Source: Allobaculum mucilyticum (GTDB lineage Bacteria > Bacillota_I > Bacilli_A > Erysipelotrichales > Erysipelotrichaceae). Taken from it: a DNA stretch of 64,000 bases. Location of the stretch: contig NZ_CP078089.1 of assembly GCF_022701195.1 (NCBI RefSeq), forward strand, positions 1,426,001 through 1,490,000, read 5' to 3'. Under the pieces are notes generated by a model. The model searched no databases, was not told where the DNA came from, and saw only the letters and a list, made by a program, of their open reading frames with translations. A program made the translations under genes and the position numbers. Shown piece after piece: positions 1 to 58,116 of this stretch; position 1 is the stretch's first letter; every line of letters begins with the position of its first letter.

Positions 1-3000
1 GTCCTGATCTTTATTGCGGCTTACTGCAATGACGGAACTATCCTTCCAGACAAAGCCAGCGGACCAGAATTTGTATGTCGTATTGGTATGACGCCAGACT
101 AGGCCAGCCTTGTCGACAAGTTCTGTTTCGTCCTGATCTTTGTATTTCGAAGTAAAGCCGTTGGCGAAATGGTTGTTGGTTGCTTTCGGACCGGAACCGA
201 ATTCATCGCCTTTTAAGAACGGCTGTTCTCTTTCAGAAGCGGCCTGGATCAGCAGATACAGATACTTCTGTTCGCCGTTTTCCTTGAGATTGACGCCCTT
301 GTTGAATGTGATATTCAGTTTCTGATCGCCATCAAGTGCAGTCGAATAGTAAGAAGAATCGAGCCGCTGACCATTTGCGCCCAGCGTGCTGAGCAGCTGA
401 TCATAGGTGATCTTGGCATAGCCGCTCGAGCCGGCATTGATCTGCTCAAGGTTTTTGCCAAACAGCTCGCCGGCTTTGTATGCGCCGATCAGCGAATCTT
501 CATAGAGAATCTGACCTGTTCCGCCGGATACAACGCCTTCTGAACTGCCGGAACTTACGCCGCTGTCTTTGATGATGTCGGTGAAGGTCATCTGCTCAGG
601 GATCGAGCTGGCATCAATCTGAACCAGCCAGATGACACGGCCGTTTTCCCATTTCGTGCCTTTGTCCTGTTCCTGTTCAAGAACCATGACACCGGCTTTT
701 TTCGCGCCAAGATGAGATTCGCCGCTCTGTGTAACCGTAACGGAGGACTTCATGCTTACATTGCGAATTTCACCGGCGACACCAAAGGTGTAGTCTGCCA
801 TGACGTCATTTTTGACCAGAACCGGAATGAGCAGTTCATCCGCATTAACCGGTTTTGTGTAGTAGGCCAGACGGTAAGCATAGTAAGGTGCTTCGCTTTT
901 TGCATGATCCGAAACAGCCGCATAGTTCTGCGGGGTAAAGCTGAATTCTGTTGCATCTTCCGGTGCCTTGATAAAGAACGTGCGTACCGGAGAAGCCGTA
1001 TCGGAATAGACAAAACCGTCATTAGGCATGACGTCGACACGGATGTAGCCGGTGTATGCCATATGAAGGTTGTCTGTTTTTCCGTTTTCCGAAAGCTGGT
1101 CACTCATTGTGGCGGAATCCACATTAATCAGACCGCCCTGGTTTGTGGTCACTGTATAGGCAACTGCGCCTCTTGGAACCGTAAATGAAGATGTACCTGC
1201 AGCTGCAGAACCGTCAGCATTATAGATGGCGTATGCGCCAGCCATGGAAATCTCTGTATCGGACTGAACGGTACTGCCGGTTGTTTTGTGCAGCAGTTTT
1301 GCCTGGCTCATCTGCATGAAGGAGTAGTTCGAGCCTTTTTCAAAGCTGTAGCCCTGACCATTATCATTTTCGGTAATTCGACGGGTGCAGGCATAGTTGC
1401 CAAGCTGGACATCTTCCCGTCCATCCGCCGCAAGAGCCAGGAAGAGTTCCTGATCAATGACGATGGAATACTTCAGCGTTTTTGACTGACCCGGCAGGAA
1501 GTCGCCCAGGAAGAAACGGTAGCCTTTCTTCTTCCGGTTATTGCCGATTTCACTGTCGTTGCGGATTTCCTGCATGCCGCGATCTGTTGTTCCGTTGCTG
1601 CCTGTAAATTCGTTAAGCATATCGTGGATGTTCTCTTCCGACAGAACTGCACCATCCAGTTTTACGCTGTCATGATCAAGAGAAATGTATTTGAGATATT
1701 CTGCGTACCGGCTCGATGAACTGTTTGCTTCCTCATACAGGGAAAGCTCGTCATCCAGCCAGAAGTCGGCATAGGGATACGAGGAATGCTCAGAAAGAGA
1801 AACCGCGATCGTGTAGTCGATCCGCAGGTTTCCATCAGGAAGCGTCACAGGACGAGCTGCCGTTTTATTGATATTCGGTTCTGCGTTCAGAACATTAGCC
1901 ACAACATCCTGACTTTTCTTCACCGAACCGATCCAGGCGCTTGCTTCGTTCTTTGTCGTAAACTGACCGCCCTGAAGCTGATCCGTTTTTGCCTGAACCT
2001 TATATTCAATGACCAGCTGCGAATTGGCTTCCAGGGATTCGGTGTAGTACGTAAATCCGCGGGACGGGACAGAGTGGCTTACTTTGTTTTCAGAACCGAA
2101 TGAATGACTGATCGCCGCTCCGCTCTTTCCGTTGTCATAGAAGTGTGCACTGTCTGCCGTGTTGATCTGCGTTTCCGGCAGGTCATCAATCGCAGCATCT
2201 TTTCCGCCTTTGCGGATGATCAGCGAACCAGGCACGGAAGTGAATGCCCAGTGGTTTGCGGTCATTCTGTCATCTACAAAGACATTGGGGACATCGTATT
2301 CGCCGGTTGTTACGATCAGACGGTAGACATGGTAAACGCCTGTTTCGTCTTTGATCAGATTCCAGGTTTTATCGATATCAAGCGTTCCATAAATCTCTGG
2401 CTTGATATTTTCAAAATGGAATGTCTGGCTGTCTGAACCGATCGTTACAGTTTCTTCGGTTTTGCCGCTGAGGGCAACCACATCCAGGCCGCCCTGAATA
2501 AAGAATGTTCCTTCTTCAATATCGCCTGGCAGATCGTCGTAATGGATCATGTCCAGATGAACATGTCCTGCACCGTTTTCCTGACATCCATAATATTCGC
2601 CCAGAATATTCGCCCAGGTTGATTTCGGTATCGCCGCTTCCTTTGTAGAGAATCGGCGTACGGGCACTGCTCATTAAGACGAAATATGGAAGATCAAAGT
2701 AGACACGTCCACTTGCTTTTTCGATCTCGGACTTTTTCAGATCTCTGTAATTTACAGAAATTCGAACCTGATCGTCATAGTGCAGCTGAACATCATCGGT
2801 AATCGTCTCCCAGCTGTCTGTACCGGCGCGCTGATACTGGAACGTGGCGCCAGTTACATTGGGAGCAATGTTGTAATTTTTCTGGCAGGACAGAGAAGAT
2901 CCCCCTGTTTCTGCCGGTTTTACGGGTGCCGGTTTTGCTTCTTCTGCCTCGGGGGCATCCTGTTCAGAGGATTGCTCTGTGCCGCTTTCTGCTTTGGAAG

Positions 3001-3961
3001 CACGTTCAAATACCGGGTAATAGCCGTACGGCTGCGGGCTGGTCAGAACAATGCTTACAGCACTGACTGACTGATCCTGCCGGGTCACTGCATACGCCAC
3101 GTTTCCGGAAATTGATGTTACGACACCGCCATGCAATCCATCGGACAGACTGAAGAACAGAAGATCGCCCTTCTTCAATTCTGAATAGTCAGTCTGCAGC
3201 CATCCGGATGCCTTTGCCTGGGCTGCCCACTGATCCATATTTTCTGCATTGGAAAGTCTGCTCTTTGAAGCGCCGGCATAAGTGTAGACAAAACGGAGGA
3301 AATCCGTTTGCCAGTCTGCTCTGTATGGAACGCCAGCCCACTGGCCATAGCGTGTGTAGAACATTTTTACGCCAGACGGATCAGTCTGGAAGTTTTTCTC
3401 ACTCTGTCTGTAGCCAATCTGACGCAATGCAATGGCAACAGCTTTGTTGGCTCCTGAAGGAAGCGTCAGCGCATTGGCCATTACGGCTTCCCACATCGCA
3501 GCTGTTTCGATATCTGCTTTGGGATCTGCCTCTGTCTGGGAATCTTTCTGCTGTGAATTTGCTGAATCGGCGGGTTCATTTTTCTCGCCAGCATCTGTCT
3601 CTTTCGAATCATCATCAGCAACATCCGGTTTCTGTTTGTCCTGGTTTTCCGCTGTCTGATCCGAAGCAGCTGAGGATGGATCTTCTGATTTTTCCAGAGC
3701 GGATGAATCAGCTTTGGGTTCTTCTTCCGGCTGCTCTGCCGAATTCGCATTTTCATCTTCTGCAGCCGGCAGGGCCGGTTCCTGGAGAGGTGTCTCAGAC
3801 TGAACGGCTGACTGCGCCTCTTCGCTCGCATAGACAGTCTGCGGATCCTGCGCCATTGTCTGGACGACCATGGAACAGGATACGGTTACTGCCGTAAGGA
3901 CTGAGAATAACCGGCTGATCAGTCGTTTTTTCTTTGAATGATTTCTGCCATTCCCTTTCAT
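1..3961 (-). pseudogene. giant pilus-tip adhesin of cluster 1, frameshifted by a 13-bp tandem duplication; 3' end outside the window
   Basis: Cell-surface adhesin, third gene of a leftward sortase C - minor pilin - adhesin cluster. It starts at 3961 behind an AGGAG site. The protein has a signal peptide (to about residue 45), an acidic low-complexity linker (45-150), then a CHAP/NlpC-like domain (about 170-315) with the usual GYR...YTRYG...PYRADW frame. The catalytic Cys is Gln218, so peptidase activity is unlikely. The frame breaks at 2592-2617, where 13 bp are repeated in tandem; reading stops at 2516. In the shifted frame the sequence is open without a stop from there to position 1 (over 860 codons). 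With one repeat copy removed the join reads LGEYYGCQENGAGHVHLD, which aligns with LGRLYACPRENHIHIDY in the cluster 2 adhesin. That match is the strongest proof that the duplication is the lesion. No anchor signal is seen because the end lies outside the window. Confidence 0.85.
2592..2617. repeat. perfect 13-bp tandem duplication inside the adhesin gene
   Basis: Two adjacent identical copies of AATATTCGCCCAG (2592-2604 and 2605-2617). Thirteen is not a multiple of three, so the second copy shifts the reading frame of the adhesin; loss of one copy restores it. Confidence 0.95.
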
Positions 3962-3996: not shown

Positions 3997-4836
3997 TTAC
4001 TTCGCCGAATTCTTTCTCATTTGCCAGAAAAGAATCAGAAGTCCGCCGGCAATCAGAAACAGACCAGCGTAAATGAACAGTCCGCTGATCGAAGCAGTCG
4101 ACGCTTTATCGGATTTATCTGTCTTATCTTTTGAAGAAGTATTCGACTTGTCGGAAGAGCCTTTATCTTTCGAGGAAGCCGTCGATTTTTCTGAAGAAGA
4201 TGTACTGCTCTGGGAGCTCTTGTCCGAGCTTTCAGTCGAACTTGTACTTGAGCTTGTCGAAGAACTCTCGCTGGACTCATCAGAAGAGTCGATATCCAGA
4301 TCGAGTTCCATCTTCGGAAAAGCCGTTACATCATAGACATAGGATTTGGAAACTTCATCATATTGCGGAACGGAACAGACAAACGGATGCATCGCCCTGT
4401 ATCCGTCTGCCGGATCTTCCTGCGCCAGGAGGTAAAGACCGGGGGCAGTTTCGCCAAAATCTGCCTCTCCATCCTGTCTGATCTGAACTTTCCGTCCGGC
4501 TATTTCGTTGTTTTTTGCATACTCTGCAAGCTGCTCAGGCAGAAGTCTGCTCTGCAGATCAGAAAGATCGGCTTTGCTTCCGGCAAAGTCTGAATGAAGG
4601 ACAAACTTCGGATTTCCATCCTCATTCTTCTCGATTGTTCCCGCCTGATAAACGGTCAGCGATCCGCCGCCAATCGGCGTTCCGTCACTCTTTACGACGC
4701 TGATCGTCAGCGTCCCGTTCCGGCTAAGATCCAGATCTTCTGCAGCATCCGCAGAGATGGTAAATGACAGGACCAGTGCAAGAACCATGCCGATCCCAAG
4801 CAAGAACCTGCCTGCTCTTTCGTGTAACGCTCTCAT
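3997..4836 (-). CDS. serine-rich minor (basal-type) pilin, cluster 1
   Basis: Secreted pilus subunit of 279 residues, start at 4836 behind AAAGGAG. It has a signal peptide ending near ADAAEDL and a compact beta-rich domain (about 35-180) opening with LDLSRNGTLTISV and a DGTPIGGGSLTVYQ stretch. A long Ser/Lys/Asp linker (about 185-245) follows, then one membrane helix and the basic tail MRKNSAK. No LPxTG motif is visible before the helix, so it may stay membrane-bound or be attached by another route. The cluster 2 protein at 18553-19329 has the same layout and similar sequence. It lies 160 bp downstream of the sortase gene and 35 bp upstream of the adhesin gene, so the three are probably one transcript. 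Calling it a basal pilin is inference from layout; FctB-like ancillary pilin is equally possible. Confidence 0.75.
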   Translation of the reverse strand: MRALHERAGRFLLGIGMVLALVLSFTISADAAEDLDLSRNGTLTISVVKSDGTPIGGGSLTVYQAGTIEKNEDGNPKFVLHSDFAGSKADLSDLQSRLLPEQLAEYAKNNEIAGRKVQIRQDGEADFGETAPGLYLLAQEDPADGYRAMHPFVCSVPQYDEVSKSYVYDVTAFPKMELDLDIDSSDESSESSSTSSSTSSTESSDKSSQSSTSSSEKSTASSKDKGSSDKSNTSSKDKTDKSDKASTASISGLFIYAGLFLIAGGLLILFWQMRKNSAK

Positions 4837-5004: not shown

Positions 5005-5886
5005 TTATGCATTCGAATTCTCTCTGGAAGAATCAGAGTTTTGCGCATGATCCTTTTTTAAACGTGCTTTTGCATGCAGATAGCGGTACATCGAAATTAC
5101 CGCTGCTGCCAAAGCCAAAATCACGCCTAGACCAGTCAGAATGGCTTTTACGGAAATGGCATGGCGAATCTGTCCCGTCGAGGCACCATCTTCAGCCCGC
5201 TCTGCATAAATAAGCAGTCGATGGGTATTGATTCCGTATGGAGTACAGGTCACCAGCGTGATCTGATCTTTTTCCGATTCAAACGGGATTTCATACAGGG
5301 CTTCTGGAAGAACTTCCTCCATGCTCTTCACCGCATAGACCATCTGCGTATCCAGAACGGAGAGGATGATCTCATCCCCTTCTTTGAGCAGATCCAGATC
5401 GGTAAACAGCTTTGCGGAAGGCAGTCCCCGATGTCCAAACAGAATGGCGTTCGTCCCCTTACCGCCAACAGGCAAAGACGAGCCTTCCATATGACCGGCT
5501 CCGCAAAGCAGGACTTCATCCGACAGGGAATGGCCGATCGGCAGATTCAGATCGATGGCTGGAATTGAAATCCAGCCCATCTCTTCCGTTCCATTCAGAC
5601 GAAGAAGACTCTGGTATTGCCTGCTTTCTTCTTTTGAAGGCAGGAAGCGATCGCTCTTTCCAATCAGTGACTGGTTATATGCCTCTGCTTCTTTTTTGAT
5701 TTCTTCGATTTTCTGCGGATTTTCCTGTTTTACGGATTCAACGGCTTTCTGGTAGTTCGCAATTGAATCGTCCGTTTTCCGCGTAAAGTGCAGGTCTGAA
5801 GCTGAAGGGTAAACAGCCAGAGTGATTCCAATCCCAACCAGCACCACAGCAAGAATCGCCGACCAGTGCTTTCTGATAAAATTCAG
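5005..5886 (-). CDS. class C (pilus-assembling) sortase, cluster 1
   Basis: Membrane transpeptidase that joins pilin subunits. Recognised from GHRGLPSAKLFTDLD (catalytic His), TLVTCTPYGINTHR (catalytic Cys and Arg), and the N-terminal and C-terminal membrane segments usual for class C. The shortest reading starts at a GTG at 5847, but that cuts into the first membrane helix. Reading upstream gives LNFIRKHWSAILAVVLVG, which aligns residue for residue with the MKFLKKQLRTILFVLILF start of the cluster 2 sortase. The first codon of that stretch is CTG at 5884-5886, five bases after GGGGAGGGG, so I place the start there. It is first in the cluster and is followed by the minor pilin and adhesin genes. 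The CTG start is inference; the family call is firm. Confidence 0.88.
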   Translation of the reverse strand: MNFIRKHWSAILAVVLVGIGITLAVYPSASDLHFTRKTDDSIANYQKAVESVKQENPQKIEEIKKEAEAYNQSLIGKSDRFLPSKEESRQYQSLLRLNGTEEMGWISIPAIDLNLPIGHSLSDEVLLCGAGHMEGSSLPVGGKGTNAILFGHRGLPSAKLFTDLDLLKEGDEIILSVLDTQMVYAVKSMEEVLPEALYEIPFESEKDQITLVTCTPYGINTHRLLIYAERAEDGASTGQIRHAISVKAILTGLGVILALAAAVISMYRYLHAKARLKKDHAQNSDSSRENSNA

Positions 5887-6511
5887 TACAACCCCTCCCC
5901 TCTTTCCGCTTTAAGCAGGCAGACCAGCTGTCTGGCTCTTGAAGAAGCTGCACAGTCGTTCAGGAATCTGATTTCTGAACAGAAAGTGAAAAATAGCTTC
6001 CGTTTGTGTTATTTAAAATCAGTAACTGTAATATTTTAATATTTTTATAATCTATATAATCTGTACTGATGGTGAAATAGTCTGTCTTTGCACATTGCGG
6101 TTCAAGCAAAAACAACTGGGAACGGAAAATTATGGATAAAACATGCGAACCGGCAAAAAAATCCCGGATGCATCTGCATCCGGGATCCGACCTGTACTGT
6201 CTCACACAGCCGCCTGCGAGGCCTGTTCTCTTTCCATATTTATATATTGCAAGGAATCTTCGCATTTTCCGAAAGAACAAATCCGGAAAAGCATAACTGT
6301 AAACAAATTACGTAAAGGTCTTAAAAAACTTTGTTCTTGCAAAATTCAGCGAATCGTTCAGTCCGTTCGAAATGGCAATTTAAAATATTAGCGTATCCGA
6401 GTCTGCTTGCATGAATCTGGACGGAAATTCGGGCATCTGTCCTGCATGTGGATTCGGACAGCACAAATCACTTTAAAAACCAATATGGAAGAGAAACAGA
6501 AAGGAAATTTA
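5887..6511. promoter_or_regulatory. divergent intergenic region between pilus cluster 1 and the glycosidase
   Basis: About 620 bp without a convincing gene. It must hold the leftward pilus promoter and the rightward glycosidase promoter. It is AT-rich near 6000-6060 and 6240-6260 and contains the hairpin at 6155-6186. I could not fix exact promoter hexamers. Confidence 0.5.
6155..6186 (-). terminator. terminator-like hairpin in the leader of pilus cluster 1
   Basis: A perfect 12-bp inverted repeat, ATCCCGGATGCA (6161-6172) and TGCATCCGGGAT (6175-6186). On the minus strand it is followed by seven T residues. No leftward gene ends here; the first leftward gene downstream is the sortase about 270 bp further on. 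It may therefore act as a leader attenuator rather than an end-of-gene terminator. Confidence 0.55.
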
Positions 6512-12102: not shown

Positions 12103-12511
12103 CTGTAAAGACCCAGTCTGATGAAATATCATCATTTTCATCAGACAATCCGGTAACAGCTGATCTTACTCTGGTCGCAGAATGGAGCGATGACTCTGTA
12201 CAGAGGCTGCGTCTCGATAATCCAAAAAGCAGCGAACACCACTTCACAACCAGCGAGAAAGAGAAATCGTATCTTGTTGAAAAGGGATGGACCTTTGAGG
12301 GTATCGGCTGGTATTCCGCGCAAAGTAAAACAGTTCCGATCTATCGGCAGTACAGCCCGAACACGAATGCGGAAGCCACAACTACACTGCTTCAAAAAAC
12401 GAAAATGACCATCTGGTGCAGAATGGTTGGCTTGCGGAAGGCATTGCCTGTTCGGCTTCTCTGAATAAAGCATCCAAAGCAGTTGATCGACTTTCCTTTG
12501 GGATGTTGTGA
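12103..12511 (+). pseudogene. remnant of a surface protein: InlB-type repeat end plus two DUF5648-like repeats
   Basis: A decayed gene tail with no start. In frame from about 12103 it reads NPVTADLTLVAEWS, the typical close of a Listeria-Bacteroides (InlB B / Flg_new) repeat. It continues with NPKSSEHHFTTSEKEKSYLV and KGWTFEGIGWYSA, then PIYRQYSPNTNAE, which is the repeat pattern seen in DUF5648-type C-termini. The frame then slips: the next repeat, HNYTASKNENDHLVQNGW, lies in another frame, consistent with loss of one C from a CCC run near 12383. It ends at a TGA at 12509-12511. Such tails are usual on secreted Bacillota proteins that bind the cell wall. The large N-terminal part is missing, so the original function is unknown. 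Confidence 0.7.
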
Positions 12512-12756: not shown

Positions 12757-13404
12757 TCAGTGTTTTGAGTTTTTGAGTCGCTGGATCAGTGCAAGACATG
12801 CGGCACTGAGCACAATAGCGCTTCCTCCAGCATAGAAGAGAGATACTCCCGATCCTCCCGTTTCAGGAAGAGCATAAATCGGGTGGTTCGTCACTTCAAA
12901 GACTACATTCCGCTCACTCTGAGGTGTGTTATCACTAGGCAGCGTATAACTGACACCGTTTCCTTCTTCCGGATAGATCACTTCGAAAAGCTGATCTGTT
13001 CCGGACTGTGTCCAGTACTTGCTGCAGGGGTTGCCATCTTCGCCAAGCTCGTAGACGTAATATGGCTTATCCCTGATCTCCAGGTTATCAATGACAGCAT
13101 CCTTTGTTGTCTGACCGGAATCTCCAGCTTCCTGCTCAGAGACAGTAATTGTAACTTTCTTCAGCGGCTTCTGATTTGGATTAGCAGAATCATACGCCGT
13201 GTCATATACACCGAAGGTGTAAGTGCCCGGAAGCAGACCTCTGGTACCGAATGATTTACGGATCGTAATCGAGAATACCGGCTTCTTATTTGTGAAAGTC
13301 AGATAGAGAATCTTATCCGCACCCAGCTCTGAGATGTTAATTTTTCCATCTTTTGGACGGTTATCTTCATGCGGGAAGCTTTGGCTGTTCTTATAGATAT
13401 AGAA
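12757..13404 (-). pseudogene. cut-off C-terminal part of the cluster 2 adhesin, carrying the LPETG anchor
   Basis: This is the direct in-frame continuation of the adhesin gene beyond its TAA at 13405-13407. It starts FYIYKNSQSFP and stays open for 215 codons to the TGA at 12757. It contains a beta-sandwich region, then ALPETGGSG (LPETG at 12856-12870), a membrane helix and the basic tail QRLKNSKH. Everything expected of the C-terminus of a sortase-anchored adhesin is intact. Only an internal ATG at 12981 could restart translation, with no signal peptide, so separate use is unlikely. Without this tail the upstream protein has no sorting signal. Confidence 0.88.
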
Positions 13405-16400
13405 TTACTGTGCAGGCTCGATCGAGCTTCGATCATACCCGGCAGGTACTTCTGTTTCTTCCACTTTATACCAGGTGTCCTTATCCAGCCTATTACTGGA
13501 AGATCCGTTCAGGATAATCTGCCCAGAAGCATTTGTAGTTACTGTGAAGGATCCACTTCCTTTTGCTGCGAAATTACCGTTATCTACCGTACCTGGAGTA
13601 AAAGTGAACTTAGCTCCGGCAAGACCTTGCGTTGCATTATTCGCGTCTACTTTTTTGAGCGTTACATTTGGAGCAATATCAACACTCGATGAAGTACCGC
13701 CAATTGTATTGGTTGCCCACTTCGTGAATTCATACTCTGGTGCACTCTTGTCATAGCCTAACCATGTACAGCTGTTAGTGATGGCGAATTCACTTTCTCC
13801 TGGAGGAACCTGGAGAGAAGCAGAATAAGTAATGTGAATATGTTTCTGATCTGGAAGATTTCGAATCAGAACAATACCTTCTTCTTTGCGGAACTCCACC
13901 GTAAAGTCGGTATAGGGAGCCTCATCCGCTGTGATCTTTATGGTATCCGGAATGATTTGAATGACATTCGGATCATAAGTATCCTTCAAATCAATTGTAT
14001 CTGCAATCTCAAGCAGATCCAGTCTGTTCTTGTTCAGATCAATGAAATACTCGATCGTCGATTTTCCTGAAAGTGAAGTGGTGTTATCGATCAGCGTTGT
14101 TGATCCTTTGGTCATCGAATCCGGCAGTTTGGTATTCTTTGTGACTTCATCAACGCCAATTCGATTCTGATCATGGTAAAGGTCAACATGGTTCACAATC
14201 TCAATTGGAGAATCCGAAGCAATTGCTTCATCCCACTCTACATTCAGTTTTGAGACCAGATGAACTGTGAATTGCTGGTTGGATTTTACGTTGCTGACAA
14301 TAATCGTTACTTTCTGACCTTCGATGGTAATGCTGTCGATGGTCGGCTGATCATCACCAGTCTCAGCCAGGAAAGCTGCTACAAAACTAGAATTCTCGGA
14401 AATCGTATCTACGATTTTGAAAGTACCAGAATAAGGGGAATTGGATTTGGTATCTCCACCCTGCCTGTTTACAAGAAGTGTCCAGTCATCATAGATCTCA
14501 TGATTCGACAGTTCACCGCTGGTAATTTTTTCATCCAGGGTTGGCTTCAGACTTGCCTTAAACAATGGAAGAACGGTATTCAGATCCGAATTATCCAGCT
14601 TCTTAAAATCTCCATTCTGATAGGCAAAACGGCTTCTTGCTTCTTTGTGAATCGTGTAGTAGGAACGGAAACCATAGTCAGCTTCTGCCAGTTTCTTGGT
14701 TTCATTTCCCTGAATGGTTGAGAAGCCATTTCCGGTAGAAATATTTGCCTGATCGCGAATCCAGATCAGGTCTGGCTGGGCACCACTAGACGTGAATGCA
14801 TTTTCACCTGGCGTGGACTGAAGCAGAATATAAAGCTTCTGTTTCTCCCCGTTTTCATCGACTAGTGAGTAATTCTCTTTAAACTGAATATTGACGGTTC
14901 TGTTATCTGCAGCGTAGGAGACAGAATACAGATCTTCGTTGATCCGAGTCGTCTGACTATTTAGAACCGTTAAAAAGTCCTGATAGGTATAGGAAGGCAA
15001 CCTGCCTGCTGGATAATTTATTGAGGTCTGACTCGTATCTCCATTCATTCCTTGAGTGCCATCAAATGGAAAATTAAGTACTCCCCTGTACAGCCCAATC
15101 ACCGATTCCCCAGGTACATAATGGGTGAAATACTTGTTGCCATCTAACTCAGTCTGATTGGTGAGCGTATCTGAAAGAGTTGAGTCTTTACTGATCGTGG
15201 ATCCGCTGACTTCAACCAGCCAGATCTGCCGTCCTGCTTTCCAGGTGCCATTGGCTTCATGATCTTTCTGAGTACTCAGATAGGAGACACCGCGTTTTAC
15301 TGCACTCAGTTCTTCGCCTGTAACAATCAGATGGGAAACTTGAATATGCTGATTCACTGGAACGTACCCGTCTCCGATACCTACGCCGACCGAACTATTC
15401 AGTTCATTGGTCAGCAAAAGGTTATCTGCTCCATCTTTAGCACAGACATAGTAGACTAGTTCATAGCTCAAAGCGTGTTTGGGGTTTGCATTATTCTTTA
15501 TAGTCTCAATCGAGGACTGATACTTCTCAAGGTCAAGATTGAAATTCGGCTGATCCTCCGGAAGCTTGAACCAGATCGTACCAATTGCTACTTTTCCAGG
15601 CTCCTGTCTGCCGTCATAGACTTTCAAAGCCGCATAACCTGTATACATGAACTGATCAGAAATAGATCCGCTGACGGAAAGTTTGTCTGTGAGAGATGCT
15701 GATCCAATATTTGCTTTTCCATCTTCATTGATTTTTACCGAGTACTGTACAGAATTGCGGGGGATGTTGAACGAGGTTACATTCGTCAGGTTTCCAGCTC
15801 CATCGTAGACGTCGCCGGTCATATCCACCGGTGTATCTTCTGTCAACATTTCGCCTTTGGCTTTTTTGACAATCTCTGACTTCTGAATATTCTCAGTAAC
15901 AGTTCCAGAGTGAGGACCAGAATCGCTATAGGTAGTACCTGTATATGCCAGGTTGATATATGTCAGCTGTTCCTTGCTCTCTGTGGCCATTTTCACCATC
16001 AGTTCCCGATCAATTTTAATCTGACATTTAATGAAGTAGCGCTCTCCTCGCGACATTGTTGTAGGGGCTGGAATCTGGTATTCGCGTTTTGTTCCGTTTT
16101 CCTTATCTTCATATTTAATCGTACTAATTGGGATATCGGTATAATTCTGGTCATCTGACGAAGACTCACATTTCACCATTGAAACATAAGACAAGTATCC
16201 AGATTGCAATGCACCACCAGCCACCTGAAAATTCATATAGTCTGTGACTACACCGACAGGCCAGTCATCTGCGTTGTTGGCACCAGCCGTTACGCTGAGT
16301 TTATAAGTCAGGTAGAGGTTTCCATCATCATCTGTTCTTGTTTCTTCACTAAGGTTGGACTTACCTACGGTAAGCGTACTTTGCAGGGTATCATCTTCCC

Positions 16401-18408
16401 AGTCATAGCCTTTGTCCCCACTGGTTCCAAAATGAATCCGTGAATCATTTCGAATGTGCTGAGAACCTGTATTTAAAGAGCCTTTCTTATACTTGGCGAT
16501 ATAGGTCAGTTTGTACTGCGTATTGGGCTGCAGCGTTCCAAGATAAAATCCTGCACGCGGAGCCGGAGAACCTTCAACCTCATGCGTTGCGTTCCCATTC
16601 GGATTCGTAACTGGGGTGTAGTTAAGCATCAGAGGTGTGTCTGAACCCTTCTGATCCAGGACATAGTGGTACTGGCTGGCTGGAATTTCAGTCGGAGCTC
16701 CATTACTGGCGACAGAGTAGAAATGAATATCTTCGTATGGTGTAAAGCCTTCTTTGAAGTCAGCACTCCATGACGTGTAGGTGTCTCCCCACCAGTCATC
16801 GACAATTGTGTCTGGGCAAATATGGTCATCCGTCACGAAACTGATCTGGTAGCTAATGATTGTGTTGCCGTCTTCATCATAGGAATAGTTCTCATGATTT
16901 CCGCCTTCTGGATTTTTTGCTTTTTTGAAACTATGAACTGTAGCATCGTCATAACTTGAGCTTGTATCAAACTTGAAGGTGTATGTTTGGTCGCCAATCT
17001 TGTATTCCTGGTTCGGGTTATTCCAGATTTCTTCGCGGTTAGTTAAAAGTGAATATTCAAATTCGCCTTCTTTAATATCTAATCCACCCAGTTCCTGATA
17101 GTTGCTGTAATCAATATGGATATGATTCTCACGTGGACATGCATACAGTCTTCCAAGCTCAATCGTTTTAGTCGTTCCATCCGTATTTTTAATAGTATGC
17201 ATCAGGGGTGTTCCTTCCTGAGCCATGTTGGAATGAAGGAATGAAGGAATGGAATAGTAGAATGTGTGGTTACTATCAACGATTGTCTTATTCGCTAGGT
17301 TCTCGTAATTCACAGTCATTTTGAACTCGACGTTCATTTTGTAAATTGTTCCATTATCACCTGGCTGTATTTCTGTCCATTCAGTAGGCGTGTTCCCTGA
17401 GTTTGCAGGATAGCGGTAAAAAAACTTTGCGGCTGTAGGATGCTCTTTATAATTTCCTGACTCCGGATTGCCTTCTGGGTTGGATTCTGGGAATTTTGCT
17501 GTTGGACAGTCTGCAGACTGTTCAACTGTCTGATCTCCCGCTGTTGGCTGTACGTTTGCAGCTTGCGGAGCGTAATTTACAGCTGCTGGTTCTGCCAGTT
17601 CGGGTACTTTATCAGAAGAACTTTCTGAAGATGGCTGTGCAGATTCTTCTGCTTCCGTCTTCTGTTCCGGCTGGCTGTCTAATAACACTCGAATCGTTCC
17701 ATAAACATCGGCATGTTTTACAGACTTTGAAACAATCGTTCTGTTTTCTGCTTCAACGACTTCAAGCGTACTTTCTTCAGATGCTGTAACAATTACACCA
17801 TTCAGAGCGCCATTATCTTCAATAAAAGCAAGATCGCCGACAGATGCTTCAGATGCCTGTTTGAGCAGACCTCCCTCTACGAGCGGTGTCATCCACTCGG
17901 AAATACTTTTTCCGTAAAAACTGCTTACATCAGCTCCGGCATAGCTGTAGACGAATCGGAGGAAACTCTCCTGAATATCTGTCTGATATGGGTTGTGTTC
18001 CCAGGCGCCATAGCGGGAGTAATAGGCTTCTGTTCCATCTTCAAGAACCTTGAAATTGCTTTTGCTCTGACTTTTTCCAATCTGAGTCTGAGCAATCTTC
18101 GCAGCTTTGGCTGGAGATGAAGCTTCTGAAAGAATGTCCGCAAAATCTGCTGTCCAGACAGATTCGTCTTCCAGATCCGCTTCTGGATTCGACTCACACT
18201 GTCTGGTATGGGTATGCTCCGGAATCGGGCAGTTTTCTTCGCAGTTTTCGCTGTGAATGTGTTCTTCCATTCCGCAGTACATCTGTGGTTTTGCGAGTGC
18301 TGTAGCAGGAAGAATCAGAGCGTATGCGGTGGCCAGAACCGTCAGGACCGTCAGCGCTCTGAGCAGAATTGGGTGTTTTTTCTTAAAGAACTGTTTCGTT
18401 CCGAACAT
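13405..18408 (-). CDS. giant pilus-tip adhesin of cluster 2, ended early by an in-frame TAA
   Basis: Surface adhesin, 1,667 residues to the premature stop (1,883 codons with the tail). The ATG at 18408 is preferred over 18414 because only it has a proper spacing to GGAG. After a signal peptide (LPATALA), residues about 45-75 carry a paired motif C-G-x-E-H-x-H-x(3)-C and C-x(4)-H-x-H-x(3)-C, which looks like a metal site. A CHAP-like domain follows (about 100-250); the catalytic Cys position is Gln and the His position is Asn. Then come many beta-sandwich domains and a Cna_B/SpaA-type domain near 1570-1660 ending in KVEETEVPAGYD. The TAA directly follows EPAQ and lies inside that domain, so the last strand is lost as well as the LPETG anchor. 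It is the last gene of the pilus cluster. Confidence 0.85.
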   Translation of the reverse strand: MFGTKQFFKKKHPILLRALTVLTVLATAYALILPATALAKPQMYCGMEEHIHSENCEENCPIPEHTHTRQCESNPEADLEDESVWTADFADILSEASSPAKAAKIAQTQIGKSQSKSNFKVLEDGTEAYYSRYGAWEHNPYQTDIQESFLRFVYSYAGADVSSFYGKSISEWMTPLVEGGLLKQASEASVGDLAFIEDNGALNGVIVTASEESTLEVVEAENRTIVSKSVKHADVYGTIRVLLDSQPEQKTEAEESAQPSSESSSDKVPELAEPAAVNYAPQAANVQPTAGDQTVEQSADCPTAKFPESNPEGNPESGNYKEHPTAAKFFYRYPANSGNTPTEWTEIQPGDNGTIYKMNVEFKMTVNYENLANKTIVDSNHTFYYSIPSFLHSNMAQEGTPLMHTIKNTDGTTKTIELGRLYACPRENHIHIDYSNYQELGGLDIKEGEFEYSLLTNREEIWNNPNQEYKIGDQTYTFKFDTSSSYDDATVHSFKKAKNPEGGNHENYSYDEDGNTIISYQISFVTDDHICPDTIVDDWWGDTYTSWSADFKEGFTPYEDIHFYSVASNGAPTEIPASQYHYVLDQKGSDTPLMLNYTPVTNPNGNATHEVEGSPAPRAGFYLGTLQPNTQYKLTYIAKYKKGSLNTGSQHIRNDSRIHFGTSGDKGYDWEDDTLQSTLTVGKSNLSEETRTDDDGNLYLTYKLSVTAGANNADDWPVGVVTDYMNFQVAGGALQSGYLSYVSMVKCESSSDDQNYTDIPISTIKYEDKENGTKREYQIPAPTTMSRGERYFIKCQIKIDRELMVKMATESKEQLTYINLAYTGTTYSDSGPHSGTVTENIQKSEIVKKAKGEMLTEDTPVDMTGDVYDGAGNLTNVTSFNIPRNSVQYSVKINEDGKANIGSASLTDKLSVSGSISDQFMYTGYAALKVYDGRQEPGKVAIGTIWFKLPEDQPNFNLDLEKYQSSIETIKNNANPKHALSYELVYYVCAKDGADNLLLTNELNSSVGVGIGDGYVPVNQHIQVSHLIVTGEELSAVKRGVSYLSTQKDHEANGTWKAGRQIWLVEVSGSTISKDSTLSDTLTNQTELDGNKYFTHYVPGESVIGLYRGVLNFPFDGTQGMNGDTSQTSINYPAGRLPSYTYQDFLTVLNSQTTRINEDLYSVSYAADNRTVNIQFKENYSLVDENGEKQKLYILLQSTPGENAFTSSGAQPDLIWIRDQANISTGNGFSTIQGNETKKLAEADYGFRSYYTIHKEARSRFAYQNGDFKKLDNSDLNTVLPLFKASLKPTLDEKITSGELSNHEIYDDWTLLVNRQGGDTKSNSPYSGTFKIVDTISENSSFVAAFLAETGDDQPTIDSITIEGQKVTIIVSNVKSNQQFTVHLVSKLNVEWDEAIASDSPIEIVNHVDLYHDQNRIGVDEVTKNTKLPDSMTKGSTTLIDNTTSLSGKSTIEYFIDLNKNRLDLLEIADTIDLKDTYDPNVIQIIPDTIKITADEAPYTDFTVEFRKEEGIVLIRNLPDQKHIHITYSASLQVPPGESEFAITNSCTWLGYDKSAPEYEFTKWATNTIGGTSSSVDIAPNVTLKKVDANNATQGLAGAKFTFTPGTVDNGNFAAKGSGSFTVTTNASGQIILNGSSSNRLDKDTWYKVEETEVPAGYDRSSIEPAQ

Positions 18409-18552
18409 ACGCATTCTCCATTCTATTTTTCTCTTATTTGCATTTCGTTCCGATGAAAATACCGGATCTATTCTTCTTAGCAGGACTCACGAGGTTCGCC
18501 TGTTTCCCGGAGCTATTCCTGCTGTTTTTAATTTATGAATCGTCAGATACTG

Positions 18553-19329
18553 CTACTGCTTTGAGTCTTCTCGTCGGTTGAGGATAAACAGCATGAGAAG
18601 CAGCATGCAGGAAATCAGAAACAGACCTCTGAACAGAGCGAGTCCAGTTTCCTCAGCAGTAGAAGGTTTTTTGGTTGAACTTGATGAAGAGTTCTTCGAA
18701 GAAGATTTGGAAGAGCTCTTGGACTCAGACTCGCTTGAGGATTCCGACTTGCTCGTAGACGTCGAAGTTGAAGACTCTGATGATGAAGATTCAGACGATG
18801 AAGCATCTTCAATATCTGTATCCATTTTTGGCAGAGCCTCTACGCTGTAGTTGTAGACTTTGTTCTCTTCATCGTAATTAGGAACAGAAATCAGAAATGA
18901 CTGAATCGCTTTATATTTCGGAGCCGGCTCTTCCTGTACAACGAGATACAGACCAAGCGGGCGGTCTCCGAAACTGGCAATTCCGTCTTTACCAACAGTC
19001 ATCTTTGATCCAGGTACTTTGTTCTTCTTTACGAAGTCTTCGAGATAGCTGATCACATTCCGGTTCTGCGGATCAGAAAGATCTGCATTGGTCGGAGCAA
19101 ATGTATCGTTCAGCTTGAACTGAGGATTGTTTTCTTCGTCGAGAACAATATCGGCAACCGGATAAATCGTCAGACTGCCTCCTGAGATGGGAGTTCCATC
19201 CTTCTTGCAGATCGTCAATTGCAAAGAACCTGTTCTGCTTAAATCAATCTGTTCTTCTGCTCTGACCGTGAGCGGAAACATCAGAATCAGGGTTAAGAAA
19301 ATTCCCAACAGTTTTTTAAAGCGAGTCAT
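18553..19329 (-). CDS. serine-rich minor (basal-type) pilin, cluster 2
   Basis: Secreted pilus subunit of 258 residues, start at 19329 behind AAAGGAG. It has a signal peptide ending near VRAEEQ, a domain opening IDLSRTGSLQLTICKKDG and closing with a YSVEALPKMD strand (about 25-175), a Ser/Glu/Lys-rich linker (about 180-225), one membrane helix and the tail NRREDSKQ. No LPxTG is present. It overlaps the sortase gene by 14 bp, so translation is probably coupled. The cluster 1 protein at 3997-4836 is a clear relative. Between its stop and the adhesin start there are about 140 bp. Role as base or ancillary pilin is inferred from position and the retained membrane helix. Confidence 0.75.
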   Translation of the reverse strand: MTRFKKLLGIFLTLILMFPLTVRAEEQIDLSRTGSLQLTICKKDGTPISGGSLTIYPVADIVLDEENNPQFKLNDTFAPTNADLSDPQNRNVISYLEDFVKKNKVPGSKMTVGKDGIASFGDRPLGLYLVVQEEPAPKYKAIQSFLISVPNYDEENKVYNYSVEALPKMDTDIEDASSSESSSSESSTSTSTSKSESSSESESKSSSKSSSKNSSSSSTKKPSTAEETGLALFRGLFLISCMLLLMLFILNRREDSKQ

Positions 19330-20164
19330 TGGATTCTCCTTTCTTTGCTCTTGGCTTTCTCGTTCGAATCAGAAGCACAATCAGCAGTACGCCGATAATT
19401 GCTCCGCCAATCCAGAGAGCGACAATTTTTTCATCAATCACTCTTGCTTCAGTATCTAAAGACCATTCTTCAAGGTTTTCTACCCGATGGCCTGTAATGA
19501 GAATTCGATGCGTATTAATTCCATATGGTGTACAGGTAACGAGAGTTGCCTGATCCTTTGCCGGATCAATCGCAAGCTGATCAAGCTCGGCAGGAAGTAC
19601 GATCCGGATAGAATCAATCTGATAAGTCAGCTTCTCGTTCAGTACGCTTAAAACAAAATAATCGCCCTCTACAAGCTGATCGAGATCGGTAAACAGCTTT
19701 GCGGATGGCAGTCCCCGGTGACCTGTAATCACCGTATGTGTTCCGATTCCGCCAATCGGAAGCGAAGTCCCTTCAAGATGACCGGCTCCAGCTGCAAGAA
19801 CATCCTCAGACGTTCCGTGGTAAATCGGAAGATTTACTTTGATCGAAGGAATAGAGATCGATCCCATGACCGATGAATCTCCAACCTTCAGCAGTTCGTT
19901 ATATTCAGCACTCTGTTCCGGCGTCGGATGATATCGGTCCGGCCGGGTCAGAAGATCCGTATTATAGGCAGCCGCCTTCTGACGGATCGCTTCAAGATCT
20001 TCCGTGTTCGTTTCCTCAATGATCTGTTCGTAGTTTGCTACCGCATGAGATCCCAGCGTTGTATTCCACCAGTTCGCAAAACTTGGATACGCCAGAAGCC
20101 CCAGACCCGTAAACAGAATCAGAACAAACAGAATCGTTCGCAGCTGTTTCTTCAAAAACTTCAA
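19316..20164 (-). CDS. class C (pilus-assembling) sortase, cluster 2
   Basis: Membrane transpeptidase of 282 residues. It has an N-terminal membrane helix, GHLEGTSLPIGG, TGHRGLPSAKLFTDLD with the catalytic His, TLVTCTPYGINTHR with the catalytic Cys and Arg, and a C-terminal helix followed by RTRKPRAKKGE. The start is a TTG at 20164 behind AGGAGGAG; no ATG fits. The usual DPF/DPW lid motif before the catalytic domain is not obvious (DRYHPTPEQ stands there). Upstream, between the backbone pilin and this gene, lie three 9-bp repeats and a hairpin. It probably polymerises the LPETG backbone pilin encoded next to it. Confidence 0.92.
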   Translation of the reverse strand: MKFLKKQLRTILFVLILFTGLGLLAYPSFANWWNTTLGSHAVANYEQIIEETNTEDLEAIRQKAAAYNTDLLTRPDRYHPTPEQSAEYNELLKVGDSSVMGSISIPSIKVNLPIYHGTSEDVLAAGAGHLEGTSLPIGGIGTHTVITGHRGLPSAKLFTDLDQLVEGDYFVLSVLNEKLTYQIDSIRIVLPAELDQLAIDPAKDQATLVTCTPYGINTHRILITGHRVENLEEWSLDTEARVIDEKIVALWIGGAIIGVLLIVLLIRTRKPRAKKGESNDSL

Positions 20165-20282: not shown

Positions 20283-21926
20283 CTAGTCTTCTTCTTTCTT
20301 AGCTTTTTTGGTTGCTGCAAGAGCAATTACTGCACCAGCTGCAAGAATTCCGCCAGCTGCATAGAAGATCGTTGTTCCCATGCCGCCAGTTTCTGGCAGG
20401 TTGGAAGCTTTCGAGTTCACTACCGTAATGCCTTTTTTACTTTCATCATTATCGATTTTGATTACAGCCGCTGCTTGAGCATCCGAATTCTCTTTGTGTT
20501 CGGCAGTGATGGTGAACTTGGTATCTGCTGCTTTGCTGTATCCTTCAGGAACCTTAGTTTCAGTCAGGACATATGTACCTGCGTCCAGACCGGTCATCGT
20601 AAACTGACCAAGAGTACCCGTTGCTTCACTCGATTTAATCTCAGTTGCCTTATCAATAGAGTCAACCCATCCTGCGAATTTGTTGTCGCTGTCGAAGGTG
20701 GCATATGCTGCTGGGTTGTCACCCTGTGCTTCTTTATAGAGTTTAAAACCGGCTCCACCAAGACTTTCACCAAGGTTGTTTACCTTTGTGTTTTCAAGTG
20801 TGTACATAAAAACGTAAACATGATCTTCAGCGGTTGTGCCTGTGCCCTCAGCATTCGGATTGTTGGAATACTCGAGATAGACCTTGTTGTTGTTCTGCTT
20901 ATTCTCGGCATCAAATCCGTTTCCAACAGCAGCATTCGCATTCAGCTTAGCGTTATAAGTAACAACAACTTCGATTTTGTCTTTGTCCTGAGGATCCGTA
21001 AGATGCTGCTTGAGATCTGCAATCGTAACAGTCATCTTGCGTTCGCTATCCGGTGTTCCAACAACTGCATTTGTGATTGTTTTTGGGTGTTCATAATCTC
21101 CGTTAATTACTAATTCAACTTTCGGAGTCACCGCAGTATCGTAATCAATACCAGCAGACCATTCGTCATTCAGAACGAGTTTATATGTTTCATAAGCCTT
21201 GATATCGCTGCACTGATTAATAGTTGCTGTCAGTTTGCACTGGAACGACTCTCCAATTGCATAGTCTGCAGTCTCGCCCCAGCCAGCGCCAATTACATTT
21301 GAACCGTCTGGGCCATCATGATCATCATTGTCATAGATGGACTTATCAACTTTCGGTTTAGCATTCTTTGGCTTAATATCGATCGGAGTATTGTTATGTA
21401 CCTGCAGAATGCTTAATCCATATACGTCATAATCGTCAAGATTGTTTGTCGTATCTTTGATCAGGTAGTAACCGTAGCCAAGATTAGTCGTTTCCTGGGA
21501 AATAACGGTTCCAGTACCAGACACGTTCTCTGCAAAAATCTTGGCAAGTTCGCGTGCTCCTTCACTGTCTTCATCAAGGCCGAGCTCACTAATTGCGTTA
21601 GCAATAATGTCTGCCTTTGGCGTCTCTTCAGTAAGTTTTGCTTTGATAGGAGCAAGTGGCGAAGTGTCTGCAACACCTTTGAGTGCTGCGATAATAGCTG
21701 CCTGATTGTCTACATTTACGTTATCGCCCCATTTAATATCAGCGATTTTGTCGCCTACCAACGTACCTTTGAACACCTGATAAGCCGTAAAAGTATGACC
21801 CTCTTCAAATCCCGAGACAGTTACGGCTGTCGCCGAGATAGGCATAGCGTTCATCATTGTTCCTACGCTTCCAAGAACTGTCGAAAGCGCAAGAGCCGAT
21901 GAAATAAAGAATTTTCTGGATTTCAT
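20283..21926 (-). CDS. LPETG-anchored backbone (major) pilin
   Basis: Main pilus shaft subunit of 547 residues, start at 21926 behind AAAGGAAAG. It has a signal peptide to about residue 33. An N-terminal domain with TFTAYQVFKG is followed by DIKPKNAKPKVDKSI, where the lysines are candidates for the pilin-motif lysine joined by sortase. A middle domain follows, then a SpaA/Cna_B-type C-terminal domain with GLDAGTYVLTETKVPEGY (E-box glutamate for an isopeptide bond). The end is NLPETGGMG (LPETG 510-514), a membrane helix and KKAKKEED. Signal peptidase and sortase genes flank it. It is the only LPETG backbone pilin in the window; cluster 1 may keep its own outside. Confidence 0.92.
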   Translation of the reverse strand: MKSRKFFISSALALSTVLGSVGTMMNAMPISATAVTVSGFEEGHTFTAYQVFKGTLVGDKIADIKWGDNVNVDNQAAIIAALKGVADTSPLAPIKAKLTEETPKADIIANAISELGLDEDSEGARELAKIFAENVSGTGTVISQETTNLGYGYYLIKDTTNNLDDYDVYGLSILQVHNNTPIDIKPKNAKPKVDKSIYDNDDHDGPDGSNVIGAGWGETADYAIGESFQCKLTATINQCSDIKAYETYKLVLNDEWSAGIDYDTAVTPKVELVINGDYEHPKTITNAVVGTPDSERKMTVTIADLKQHLTDPQDKDKIEVVVTYNAKLNANAAVGNGFDAENKQNNNKVYLEYSNNPNAEGTGTTAEDHVYVFMYTLENTKVNNLGESLGGAGFKLYKEAQGDNPAAYATFDSDNKFAGWVDSIDKATEIKSSEATGTLGQFTMTGLDAGTYVLTETKVPEGYSKAADTKFTITAEHKENSDAQAAAVIKIDNDESKKGITVVNSKASNLPETGGMGTTIFYAAGGILAAGAVIALAATKKAKKEED

Positions 21927-23152: not shown

Positions 23153-23410
23153 GAAACAAATATTCCTCTTAAACCAGAATCAGACGTTTTTTCTTTGCGG
23201 TCTTTCTGACCTTTTTTGCTTGGCTTCCTGCAATGTCATTAAGTTAAAGTCGTAAACCTCGCTGAAGTTCCTGAACCAGAGGAGTAGAAGGATTGTTCTA
23301 AGAAGAGGAAGCACGACGAAAAGGGTAATTTTTTCGTGTTTAAAAAAATCACCCTGTCGTTAATTAGTGCTTTATCAAGCTGTTCTACCTATTTCTTTGC
23401 TTTTTCCTTT

Positions 23411-24715: not shown

Positions 24716-24816
24716 AGGTGATTTTTCCTTTCATCACCTGACTGGCCGCTACGCGGCCGCACGGCGGGGTGAAAAAAACAACCTTTAGAACCAACAAAAT
24801 CAATTTATGCAAAATA

Positions 24817-24851
24817 AAAACCAGTTTTTACGATTAGCAAAAACTGGTTTT
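24817..24851. terminator. hairpin with flanking A and T runs near the right end of the IS4 element
   Basis: AAAACCAGTTTTT and AAAAACTGGTTTT form a 13-bp stem with a nine-base loop. It can stop transcription in either direction and probably shields the transposase from outside reading. Confidence 0.65.
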
Positions 24852-24884
24852 ATAAGCCTTGGAAAAAAGAGGACCTCTTCTTAG

Positions 24885-43338: not shown

Positions 43339-44225
43339 TTACCTTTCCTGATCTTTCTTTACATCTTCCTTTAATTCTTCTAATGCGTCGGCGATATTTT
43401 CACGGATGCAGATCGACTGGCTGCTGATTTCTTCAGGAACATAAGTATCCGAATTATTGATGCAGGCATATACGGCGTTTGGGTTCTGTGCTGTCATCTG
43501 CCAGAACGGATATTTGATAATCCCCGGCGTATTGGCACCGACACCAAGTTCGAGAAACAGAATTTTCTTTCCTTTATGCGCTCTGACAAATTCCTTATAC
43601 CGGTCTGATACCGGTCTGCCGCTGCATACCATCCGGCATCCTGTACAAAGGTATCGTCACAGCGCAGGTTCATCGTCATCGGTTTGCCGCAGACGGGGCA
43701 TTTAGGAATCAGATCCGATGGGATTTTCATGCCCTTCTGCTCTTTGACCATCTTCCGGACGATTTCTTCATTGTCATACGTCTTTTCATGGCAGGGCGTG
43801 GAGCACTGAAACAGGCCATAATCGCCCTGGGTATAGAACAGTCTCTTTTTATCAAAACCGGCAAGCTGAAACTGATGATCCACGTTTGTAGTCAGCACAA
43901 AATAATCTTTGTCTTTTACAAGATCGAGAAGATCGGTATATGGCTTTCCCGGAACTGTGTCATAGCGGTTGACCAGAATCTGTCTCGACCACCAGGCCCA
44001 GAACTCTTCCAGGGAATCGTAGGGGTAGAAGCCGCCGGAATACATATCGGTAATGCCGTACTTCTGATGAAAGTCCGAGAAATACTTCTCGAAACGCTCC
44101 CCATCATAGGTCAGTCCGGCAGCCGTCGACATGCCCGCTCCGACCCCGATCAGAATGGCATCAGCTTTTTCGAATTCATCTTTCAGTCTTTCGATCTGTT
44201 TCGAGCAGCTTTCTGTAGATGTCAT
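43339..44225 (-). pseudogene. class M sirtuin (SirTM), frameshifted by an 11-bp tandem duplication
   Basis: SirTM-type protein ADP-ribosyltransferase, NAD-dependent, normally paired with a macrodomain hydrolase. From ATG 44225 the first part has ILIGVGAGMSTAAGLTYDG (NAD loop) and FVLTTNVDHQFQLAGF, where TTNVD replaces the TQNID of deacetylase sirtuins as in SirTM. CPVCGKPMTMNLRCDDTF is the cysteine region. At 43597-43618 eleven bases are repeated and the frame shifts; this reading would stop at 43494. The remaining part, KKILFLELGVGANTPGIIKY and the C-terminus to 43339, is intact in the other frame. Removing one copy gives WYAAADRYKEFVRAHKGK, the expected junction. The start overlaps the end of the macrodomain gene by 50 bp. 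Confidence 0.88.
43597..43618. repeat. perfect 11-bp tandem duplication inside the sirtuin gene
   Basis: ATACCGGTCTG occurs at 43597-43607 and again at 43608-43618. The extra 11 bases cause the frameshift; loss of one copy restores the protein. Confidence 0.95.
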
Positions 44226-55476: not shown

Positions 55477-55617
55477 TTTTTTTCAGCCAGAAACAGAGGA
55501 GGAGATCCAGGAAGAGAAAGGACAATCTAAAATTTCTTGAGGTGGGCACAGACCTATAAAGTTTTCTGAGGTGCGAACCTCAAGAGACTAAGGCGACCTT
55601 TAAAGCTTCGTGAGGCT

Positions 55618-55697
55618 GGGGGGGGGAGGTGTCAGCTGAAGTGGGGCATTAGACATAGCTCGGACCATGCCCCCTGGAAGCTGACACCTCCCCCCCT
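55618..55697. repeat. long hairpin in the left leader of the ISL3 element
   Basis: GGGGGGAGGTGTCAGCT (55621-55637) is perfectly complementary to 55679-55695; a second stem GGGGCAT/ATGCCCC lies inside. Nine G residues stand at the base. No coding function is seen. Confidence 0.85.
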
Positions 55698-55856
55698 ATC
55701 CATTTTCTTGAGGTTTTCGCCTCTCTGAGACTTATGGGTATTGAAAGAGCTTTCCGCACGAAATACAGTTAGGAGTAACAAAGCGTAAAAAAAGGACGAA
55801 ACCCCATTTGAAGTTGGCCACTCAAAAGGTTTCGTCCTGCCCAGAAAGGCATCTAT

Positions 55857-56408: not shown

Positions 56409-56459
56409 CGCGTCATTTCTCCTCCTATGAGAATCTGCCATCACTAAGGAGGAAGGACT

Positions 56460-57911: not shown

Positions 57912-58116
57912 TGACAGTCCAGGTTCCCCTTTAAACAAAAATGAGGTTTTGAAACCTCAAGCTTTTGAAAAGCTCGTAGGTATCAAAACCTCAACAAAAT
58001 TTAGAGCGCCAGAGAAAGAAGATGGCGAAAACGAGAAAAGAAAAAACGCCCGGATCGCGGGCGTTGATTTTCATAGCTGTGGAGCAGAGCCAGTCTGTCC
58101 GGTTTTGCTTATCGAC

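What the first reader, a model, noticed from the sequence alone, without database searches (positions are those of the whole stretch)
2592..2617. 13-bp perfect tandem duplication switches off a giant pilus adhesin
AATATTCGCCCAG is present twice without a gap. The second copy shifts the frame, and the protein ends 25 codons later. Beyond it more than 860 codons stay open to the window edge, so the lesion is recent or reversible. Removing one copy restores a stretch that aligns with the sister adhesin of cluster 2. A perfect tandem repeat can be lost or gained by replication slippage, which would make this an on/off switch for pilus-tip adhesion.
Basis: partly seen in the sequence, partly recalled or inferred. 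Interest (0 to 1): 0.85.

Follow-up and report, generated by a model that had tools for sequence, protein, structure and literature searches.

The report
Pilus adhesin gene broken by duplication
In a gut bacterium of the genus Allobaculum, a giant surface-protein gene is cut in two by a small repeated stretch of DNA; the same kind of accident breaks unrelated genes in this genome, so it looks like a recent random mutation that might sometimes revert, not a purpose-built switch.

Summary
AATATTCGCCCAG stands twice without a gap at 2592-2617, inside a minus-strand gene. It shifts the frame and the first product ends at 481 aa. The rest stays open far past the window, 1,955 codons in all, to an LPRTG cell-wall anchor. 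The two pieces match consecutive parts of the sister adhesin, and an Allobaculum MAG carries a distant homolog in one frame across this place.

The 'on/off switch for pilus-tip adhesion' is not shown. Against it: two copies only; no repeat at the matching place in three homologs; no long homopolymers nearby; perfect tandem duplications also break a SirTM gene, an alpha-glucosidase-type gene and a zinc-ribbon gene. The sister adhesin has an in-frame stop before its own LPETG anchor. Cluster 1 has no backbone pilin beside it.

Best reading: a recent spontaneous slippage duplication that inactivates the gene and could revert at low rate. Reads or other strains, which I could not see, would decide. 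A sequencing or assembly error is possible but not favoured.

The parts
2592..2617 (-). Perfect 13-bp tandem duplication, two copies, no gap, no extra matching base at either end
2516..3961 (-). First piece of the adhesin gene as it stands: 481-aa ORF with a signal-like N terminus (by eye) and a weak CHAP-like match (E 0.0086, below the curated cut-off)
1..2591 (-). Downstream piece, open past the window edge to L004:10722 (1,955 codons beyond the repeat in all): SpaA and DUF5979 matches, LPRTG anchor
3997..4836 (-). 279-aa protein with Ser-rich stalk and C-terminal membrane segment (accessory or base subunit by position; inference)
5005..5847 (-). Class C (pilin-type) sortase of cluster 1
   Evidence: Sortase 6.8e-26; class_C_sortase 221.3 bits, cut-off 160
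13405..18414 (-). Sister adhesin of cluster 2, 1669 aa up to an in-frame stop
12757..13404 (-). Tail of the sister adhesin after the in-frame stop: 215 open codons with an LPETG anchor; Allobaculum sp. Allo2 is open at the place of the stop
   Evidence: (1 TAA inside the SpaA match)
20283..21926 (-). Backbone pilin of cluster 2
   Evidence: (GramPos_pilinBB, SpaA, Gram_pos_anchor)
19316..20164 (-). Class C sortase of cluster 2
43597..43618 (-). Second frame-breaking perfect tandem duplication (11 bp) in the window, inside a SirTM-type Sir2 gene; both pieces match PDB 5a3a

Best explanation
A recent, spontaneous slippage duplication has inactivated an LPXTG-anchored giant adhesin in this Allobaculum strain. 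Shown: the repeat, the frame break, the open downstream frame with the anchor, homologs in one frame elsewhere. Inferred: while the gene was copied, the new strand's end (CCAG) mispaired 13 bases back at CCAT and the segment was copied twice; this fits the exact repeat boundaries, including one mismatched base. The ribosome would now make a 481-aa protein with a signal-like N terminus and no wall anchor, which would be lost to the medium; the downstream frame has no evident ribosome site at its first start and no signal sequence, so it should be silent or stay inside the cell. Loss of one copy by slippage is possible at a low rate, so the lesion is potentially reversible, but nothing marks the site as an evolved switch. 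It is one of several tandem-duplication lesions in a genome rich in insertion sequences.
For: Exact repeat and frame break. Downstream frame intact to LPRTG. Neutral bound of about 1.6% substitutions per site. Imperfect CCAT/CCAG repeat 13 bases apart (family D4). AGGAG before the ATG at 3961, none before the GTG at 2667. Perfect tandems also break a SirTM gene (11 bp), an alpha-glucosidase-type gene (74 bp, L129; both pieces match PF00128, at profile 1-141 and 118-446) and a zinc-ribbon membrane protein gene (11 bp, L145; frame evidence only). Of the 30 perfect tandems of period 10 or more in 1.264 Mb, 18 have a period that is not a multiple of 3; 5 of the 18 show the frame-switch signature (I judge one, 60825-60850, to be intergenic), against 208 of 3000 random positions. 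Within 120 bases either side of the matching place, the MAG homolog has no perfect tandem of period 6-39; the sister has one of 8 bp, 73-94 bases away, and Allo2 one of 6 bp, about 45 bases away.
Against: No second strain of this species was available, so recency and direction rest on distant homologs (25-28% identity), one of them the paralog in the same genome. Few counts: 4 accepted breaks in 1.264 Mb of G000, 1 candidate in 0.4 Mb of G001, 0 in 0.8 Mb of G036, G040 and G049 together; no significance test was run. Weak AGGA/AGGG-like runs lie farther upstream of the next in-frame starts (ATG 2550, GTG 2481), so a start inside the downstream piece is not excluded. Expression was not seen.
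Confidence: 0.68

Rival explanations
1. Reversible on/off switch: cells alternate between one and two copies often enough that surface adhesion is phase-variable.
For: Perfect repeat in a surface adhesin; slippage switches of sortase pili are known in a gut commensal (Bifidobacterium breve, PMC9187656, abstract and outline), and reversible sequence duplications are reported for pneumococcal capsule genes (passages in PMC4243769 and PMC4022640).
Against: Two copies only; no repeat at this place in three homologs; no run of 8 A/T or 7 G/C in window 1-24800 or in L004:10700-14000; same lesion type in unrelated genes; PMC4022640 expects a 9-bp insertion to revert at no more than about 1e-5 (passage); in Staphylococcus aureus one agrA duplication mutant gave no revertants, although a duplication-plus-inversion mutant did (PMC6686034, passages); the sister adhesin is also interrupted, by a stop codon that is not a repeat.
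Confidence: 0.18
2. Sequencing or assembly error: the duplication is in the consensus but not in the cell.
For: Estimated completeness is 92.5% for a one-contig genome, and the related one-contig Allo2 genome (58%) has its homolog split over several frames, so genus records can be faulty. No reads were available.
Against: An exact 13-bp copy is not a usual indel error (general knowledge). A 1818-aa ORF nearby is intact (6407-11863). Of 20 further window ORFs that I chose for Pfam, 16 had a hit, and in 15 of these the best hit spans most of its profile (MFS_1 is matched in two stretches); 4 had none.
Confidence: 0.11
3. Scar of a transposon that left, its two target-site copies staying side by side.
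For: IS elements abound (95 matching pieces to one IS query), and the repeat has no extra matching base.
Against: Among 28 copies of the IS4-like group with both ends recognised in the loci held, target duplications are 9 bp in 17, 10 bp in 2 and absent in 9; the ISL3-like element makes about 8 bp (3 copies read by eye). A third element of about 1.9 kb was not resolved, and other families in the genome were not surveyed.
Confidence: 0.02
4. Programmed recoding or a genuine two-gene arrangement that still yields a full or anchored product.
For: The two frames overlap by about 150 bases.
Against: The sister and the MAG homolog have this region in one frame; no SD-like site before the GTG at 2667; no slippery run in the repeat by eye.
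Confidence: 0.01

Closest known systems
Spontaneous reversible duplications in pneumococcal capsule genes (Waite et al. 2001, 2003; not read, seen only as cited in passages of PMC4243769 and PMC4022640)
   Same: Short duplication inside an ORF, gene lost, potentially reversible
   Different: There loss and reversal were studied experimentally (as cited); here one state in one genome, and in an LPXTG adhesin
Bifidobacterium breve sortase-pilus G-tract slippage (PMC9187656, abstract and outline)
   Same: Sortase-dependent surface structure of a gut commensal turned off by a length change inside a gene
   Different: A homopolymer G-tract; no such tract is present here
Streptococcus gallolyticus Pil1 GCAGA-repeat phase variation (PMC3894217, abstract and outline)
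   Same: Pilus expression linked to repeat copy number
   Different: Repeats are in a leader peptide and act by attenuation; here the repeat is inside the structural gene

Membership tests
Phase-variable (contingency) locus by slipped-strand mispairing | Repeat whose copy number sets the reading frame | tested here: met
Phase-variable (contingency) locus by slipped-strand mispairing | Repeat tract present in both states (multi-copy, hypermutable) | tested here: not met
   Two copies only; 0 of 3 homologs (sister, Allo2, MAG) has a tandem repeat at the junction; the nearest are an 8-bp repeat 73-94 bases away in the sister and a 6-bp one about 45 bases away in Allo2. Indirect: no one-copy allele of this gene itself was seen
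Phase-variable (contingency) locus by slipped-strand mispairing | Both states seen in a population, high-frequency reversal | not testable with these tools
   No reads, no second strain (1 of 5 genus genomes, its own); metagenome scans capped at 0; downstream piece not found in genome contigs (six peptide patterns; the tool may leave out very near records)
Phase-variable (contingency) locus by slipped-strand mispairing | Lesion type concentrated in surface genes | tested here: not met
   Of 4 accepted cases in 1.264 Mb, 1 is an adhesin; the others are SirTM, an alpha-glucosidase-type enzyme and a zinc-ribbon membrane protein; small numbers
Sortase-dependent pilus cluster (cluster 1) | Class C sortase | tested here: met
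Sortase-dependent pilus cluster (cluster 1) | Backbone pilin in the cluster | tested here: not met
   None next to it in ORF lists; no SpaA match in the genome scan between the adhesin and cluster 2; present in cluster 2
Sortase-dependent pilus cluster (cluster 1) | LPXTG-type anchor on the adhesin | tested here: met
   On the separated downstream piece
Target-site scar of an excised IS | Duplication length equal to a resident element's target duplication | tested here: not met
   9-10 bp (28 copies, 19 with a target duplication) and about 8 bp (3 copies by eye); one further element unresolved

The most novel reading that the evidence does not exclude
In Allobaculum, perfect short tandem duplications arise often enough that many genes, surface adhesins and metabolic enzymes alike, sit in a potentially reversible 'off' state in any one cell line, giving a genome-wide, sequence-independent form of phase variation.
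Probability: 0.1. Interest if true: 0.65.

Novelty: new member of a known kind. Interest (0 to 1): 0.3.

Why it matters
If both lengths coexist in the gut, it would be a clean case of reversible tandem-duplication silencing in a gut commensal genus and a simple marker to count in metagenomes. If not, it still shows that both giant adhesins of this window are interrupted before their wall anchors, which warns against predicting adhesion from gene presence.

Tried and rejected
IS-excision scar: tested by measuring target duplications of the IS4-like group and, by eye, of an ISL3-like element, and rejected; a third element of about 1.9 kb was not resolved. Same-species allele comparison: no second genome of the species in the genus set (1 of 5 genomes, its own) and nothing in genome contigs with the downstream piece. 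Contingency tracts: none of the searched kinds except one TC run of 10 bases at 10603, outside the pilus genes. Promoter scan around the gene: 3 found against a mean of 4.4 in shuffles, uninformative. Structure of the 481-aa piece without an alignment: mean pLDDT 39.3, not used, no fold search made. PDB sequence search of both adhesin pieces: 0 hits each. Pfam found no family in the 250-aa SirTM ORF; the assignment rests. An excess of 9-bp tandems (10 seen, 3.9 expected in 400 kb) was not pursued. Literature searches; in the rows listed (for example 12 of 1,701, 10 of 16, 12 of 2,471) I saw no title on Allobaculum pili or their phase variation.

Full report
WHAT IS THERE. The 13-bp unit AATATTCGCCCAG stands twice in a row at 2592-2617, exactly as reported. 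The window is G000:C1:1426001-1490000 of a one-contig genome of 3,144,153 bases. So the genus is Allobaculum (Erysipelotrichaceae); the species was not identified.

THE GENE. It lies on the minus strand. The first ORF, 3961->2516, gives 481 aa; AGGAG precedes its ATG. The frame is lost at the repeat and ends 24 codons on. The other frame runs 863 codons to the window edge and on to L004:10722, 1,955 codons in all, ending in LPRTG, a membrane segment and basic residues. It carries SpaA (37.9 bits) and DUF5979 (27.8 bits), both over their cut-offs, and an LPXTG anchor. A weak CHAP match in the first piece (E 0.0086) is below the curated cut-off.

HOMOLOGS. The pieces, searched apart, match consecutive parts of the sister adhesin: 72-406 (28%) and 420-1200 (25%). 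Among 59 related genomes, 6 have a match to the first piece and 4 to the downstream piece, the own genome included. In the family, 16 of 272 genomes have a match to the sister, own genome included (only two candidates per genome were scored there). The MAG homolog is one ORF of 1,640 aa across this place with a VPPETGG end. At the junction itself none of the sister, Allo2 and the MAG homolog has a tandem repeat; within 120 bases either side the sister has an 8-bp one (17230-17251, 73-94 bases away) and Allo2 a 6-bp one about 45 bases away.

THE SISTER IS BROKEN TOO. The sister ORF ends at an in-frame stop at 13405-13407, and the same frame then runs 215 codons to the end of an LPETG anchor. 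The genome scan reports the stop inside its SpaA domain. Allo2 is open at this place. So both giant adhesins of this window are interrupted before their wall anchor, by two different lesions.

HOW UNUSUAL IS THE REPEAT. Perfect tandems of period 10 or more: 6 in the first 400 kb sample against 0.4 expected from shuffles; 27 rows in the full 1.2 Mb sample plus 3 in the window (two pairs of rows overlap). Of these 30, 18 have a period that is not a multiple of 3, and 5 of the 18 show a frame-switch signature; 208 of 3000 random positions do. I discount one of the five (60825-60850), which lies just upstream of a complete HPr kinase gene. The accepted four: this adhesin; a SirTM-type gene beside a macro-domain gene (11 bp; both pieces match PDB 5a3a, E 6.7e-57 and 4.7e-15; macro domain); an alpha-glucosidase-type gene (74 bp; both pieces match PF00128); a zinc-ribbon membrane protein (11 bp; frame evidence only, no shared family). 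Other genomes: 16 tandems and 1 candidate break in 400 kb of G001; 2 and 0 in 400 kb of G036; 1 and 0 in 200 kb of G040; 4 and 0 in 200 kb of G049. These numbers are too small to claim an excess of breaks over other genomes, and no test was run.

HOW IT AROSE. The perfect repeat has no additional matching base at either side (the same holds for 15 of the 30 rows), but CCA(T) and CCA(G) lie 13 bases apart (D4), which is what slippage with one mismatched end base would use (inference). The transposon-scar idea was tested because IS elements abound (95 matching pieces). Among 28 copies of the IS4-like group with both ends recognised in the loci held, the target duplication is 9 bp in 17, 10 bp in 2 and absent in 9; copies whose ends did not match the pattern were not counted. 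An ISL3-like element (transposase at 56460-57911) makes about 8 bp (three copies by eye). Neither fits 13 or 11.

HOW OLD. With 3.2% of possible substitutions in the downstream frame creating a stop, none in 5,868 bases bounds neutral divergence since the lesion at about 1.6% (95%). For the sister's tail the same bound is 12.6% (638 of its 645 bases used), hence uninformative.

SWITCH OR MUTATION. A switch needs both states. This could not be looked for: no reads, no other strain. Features of evolved contingency loci are missing: no long homopolymers, two copies only. A passage in PMC4022640 expects a 9-bp insertion to revert at no more than about 1e-5, citing Waite et al.; 13 bp may differ. 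In PMC6686034 (passages) one agrA duplication mutant gave no revertants while a duplication-plus-inversion mutant did. Thus 'reversible in principle' is fair, 'on/off switch' is not shown. For cluster 1 the pilus role is also inferred: class C sortase yes, backbone pilin beside it no.

SEQUENCE ERROR. Completeness of 92.5% for one contig and the broken frames of Allo2 counsel care. Against general noise: an intact 1,818-aa ORF, and in 15 of the 16 ORFs with a Pfam hit, out of 20 chosen, the best hit spans most of its profile.

VERDICT. A true observation with an over-reaching interpretation: most likely an ordinary, recent, potentially revertible duplication mutation of a kind known from pneumococcal capsule genes.

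Noticed in passing
13405-13407 and 12757-13404 (-): Sister adhesin carries an in-frame stop before its LPETG anchor; both giant adhesins of the window are interrupted before their anchors.
   Followed up: yes
43597-43618 (-): 11-bp perfect tandem duplication breaks a SirTM-type Sir2 gene beside a macro-domain gene.
   Followed up: yes
60825-60850: Another 13-bp perfect tandem duplication, just upstream of an HPr kinase gene.
   Followed up: no
L129:10558-10707: 74-bp perfect tandem duplication breaks an alpha-amylase-family (PF00128) glucosidase-type gene.
   Followed up: partly
L145:11753-11775: 11-bp perfect tandem duplication breaks a zinc-ribbon membrane protein gene (frame evidence only).
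   Followed up: partly
23231-24926 and 55517-58010: IS4-like (target duplications 9-10 bp) and ISL3-like (about 8 bp) elements, with many similar copies in the genome.
   Followed up: partly
17230-17251 (-): 8-bp repeat, 2.75 copies, inside the sister adhesin's coding frame; a change of one copy would shift the frame.
   Followed up: no
L060-L079 (400 kb sample): 9-bp perfect tandems are 10 against 3.9 expected from shuffles; 9 bp is also the commonest target duplication of the IS4-like group here.
   Followed up: no
3299-3316 (-): The CHAP-like segment (DWQTDF) seems to lack the catalytic cysteine expected from a recalled CHAP motif, so it may be a non-catalytic fold; recalled motif, not tested.
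   Followed up: no
12130-12480 (+): By eye, a decayed fragment resembling the C-terminal repeats of the ORF at L004:1850-2737.
   Followed up: no
L114:8004-13618: The Allo2 (NZ_CP078088.1) homolog is split over several frames in a genome of 58% estimated completeness, possibly sequencing errors.
   Followed up: partly
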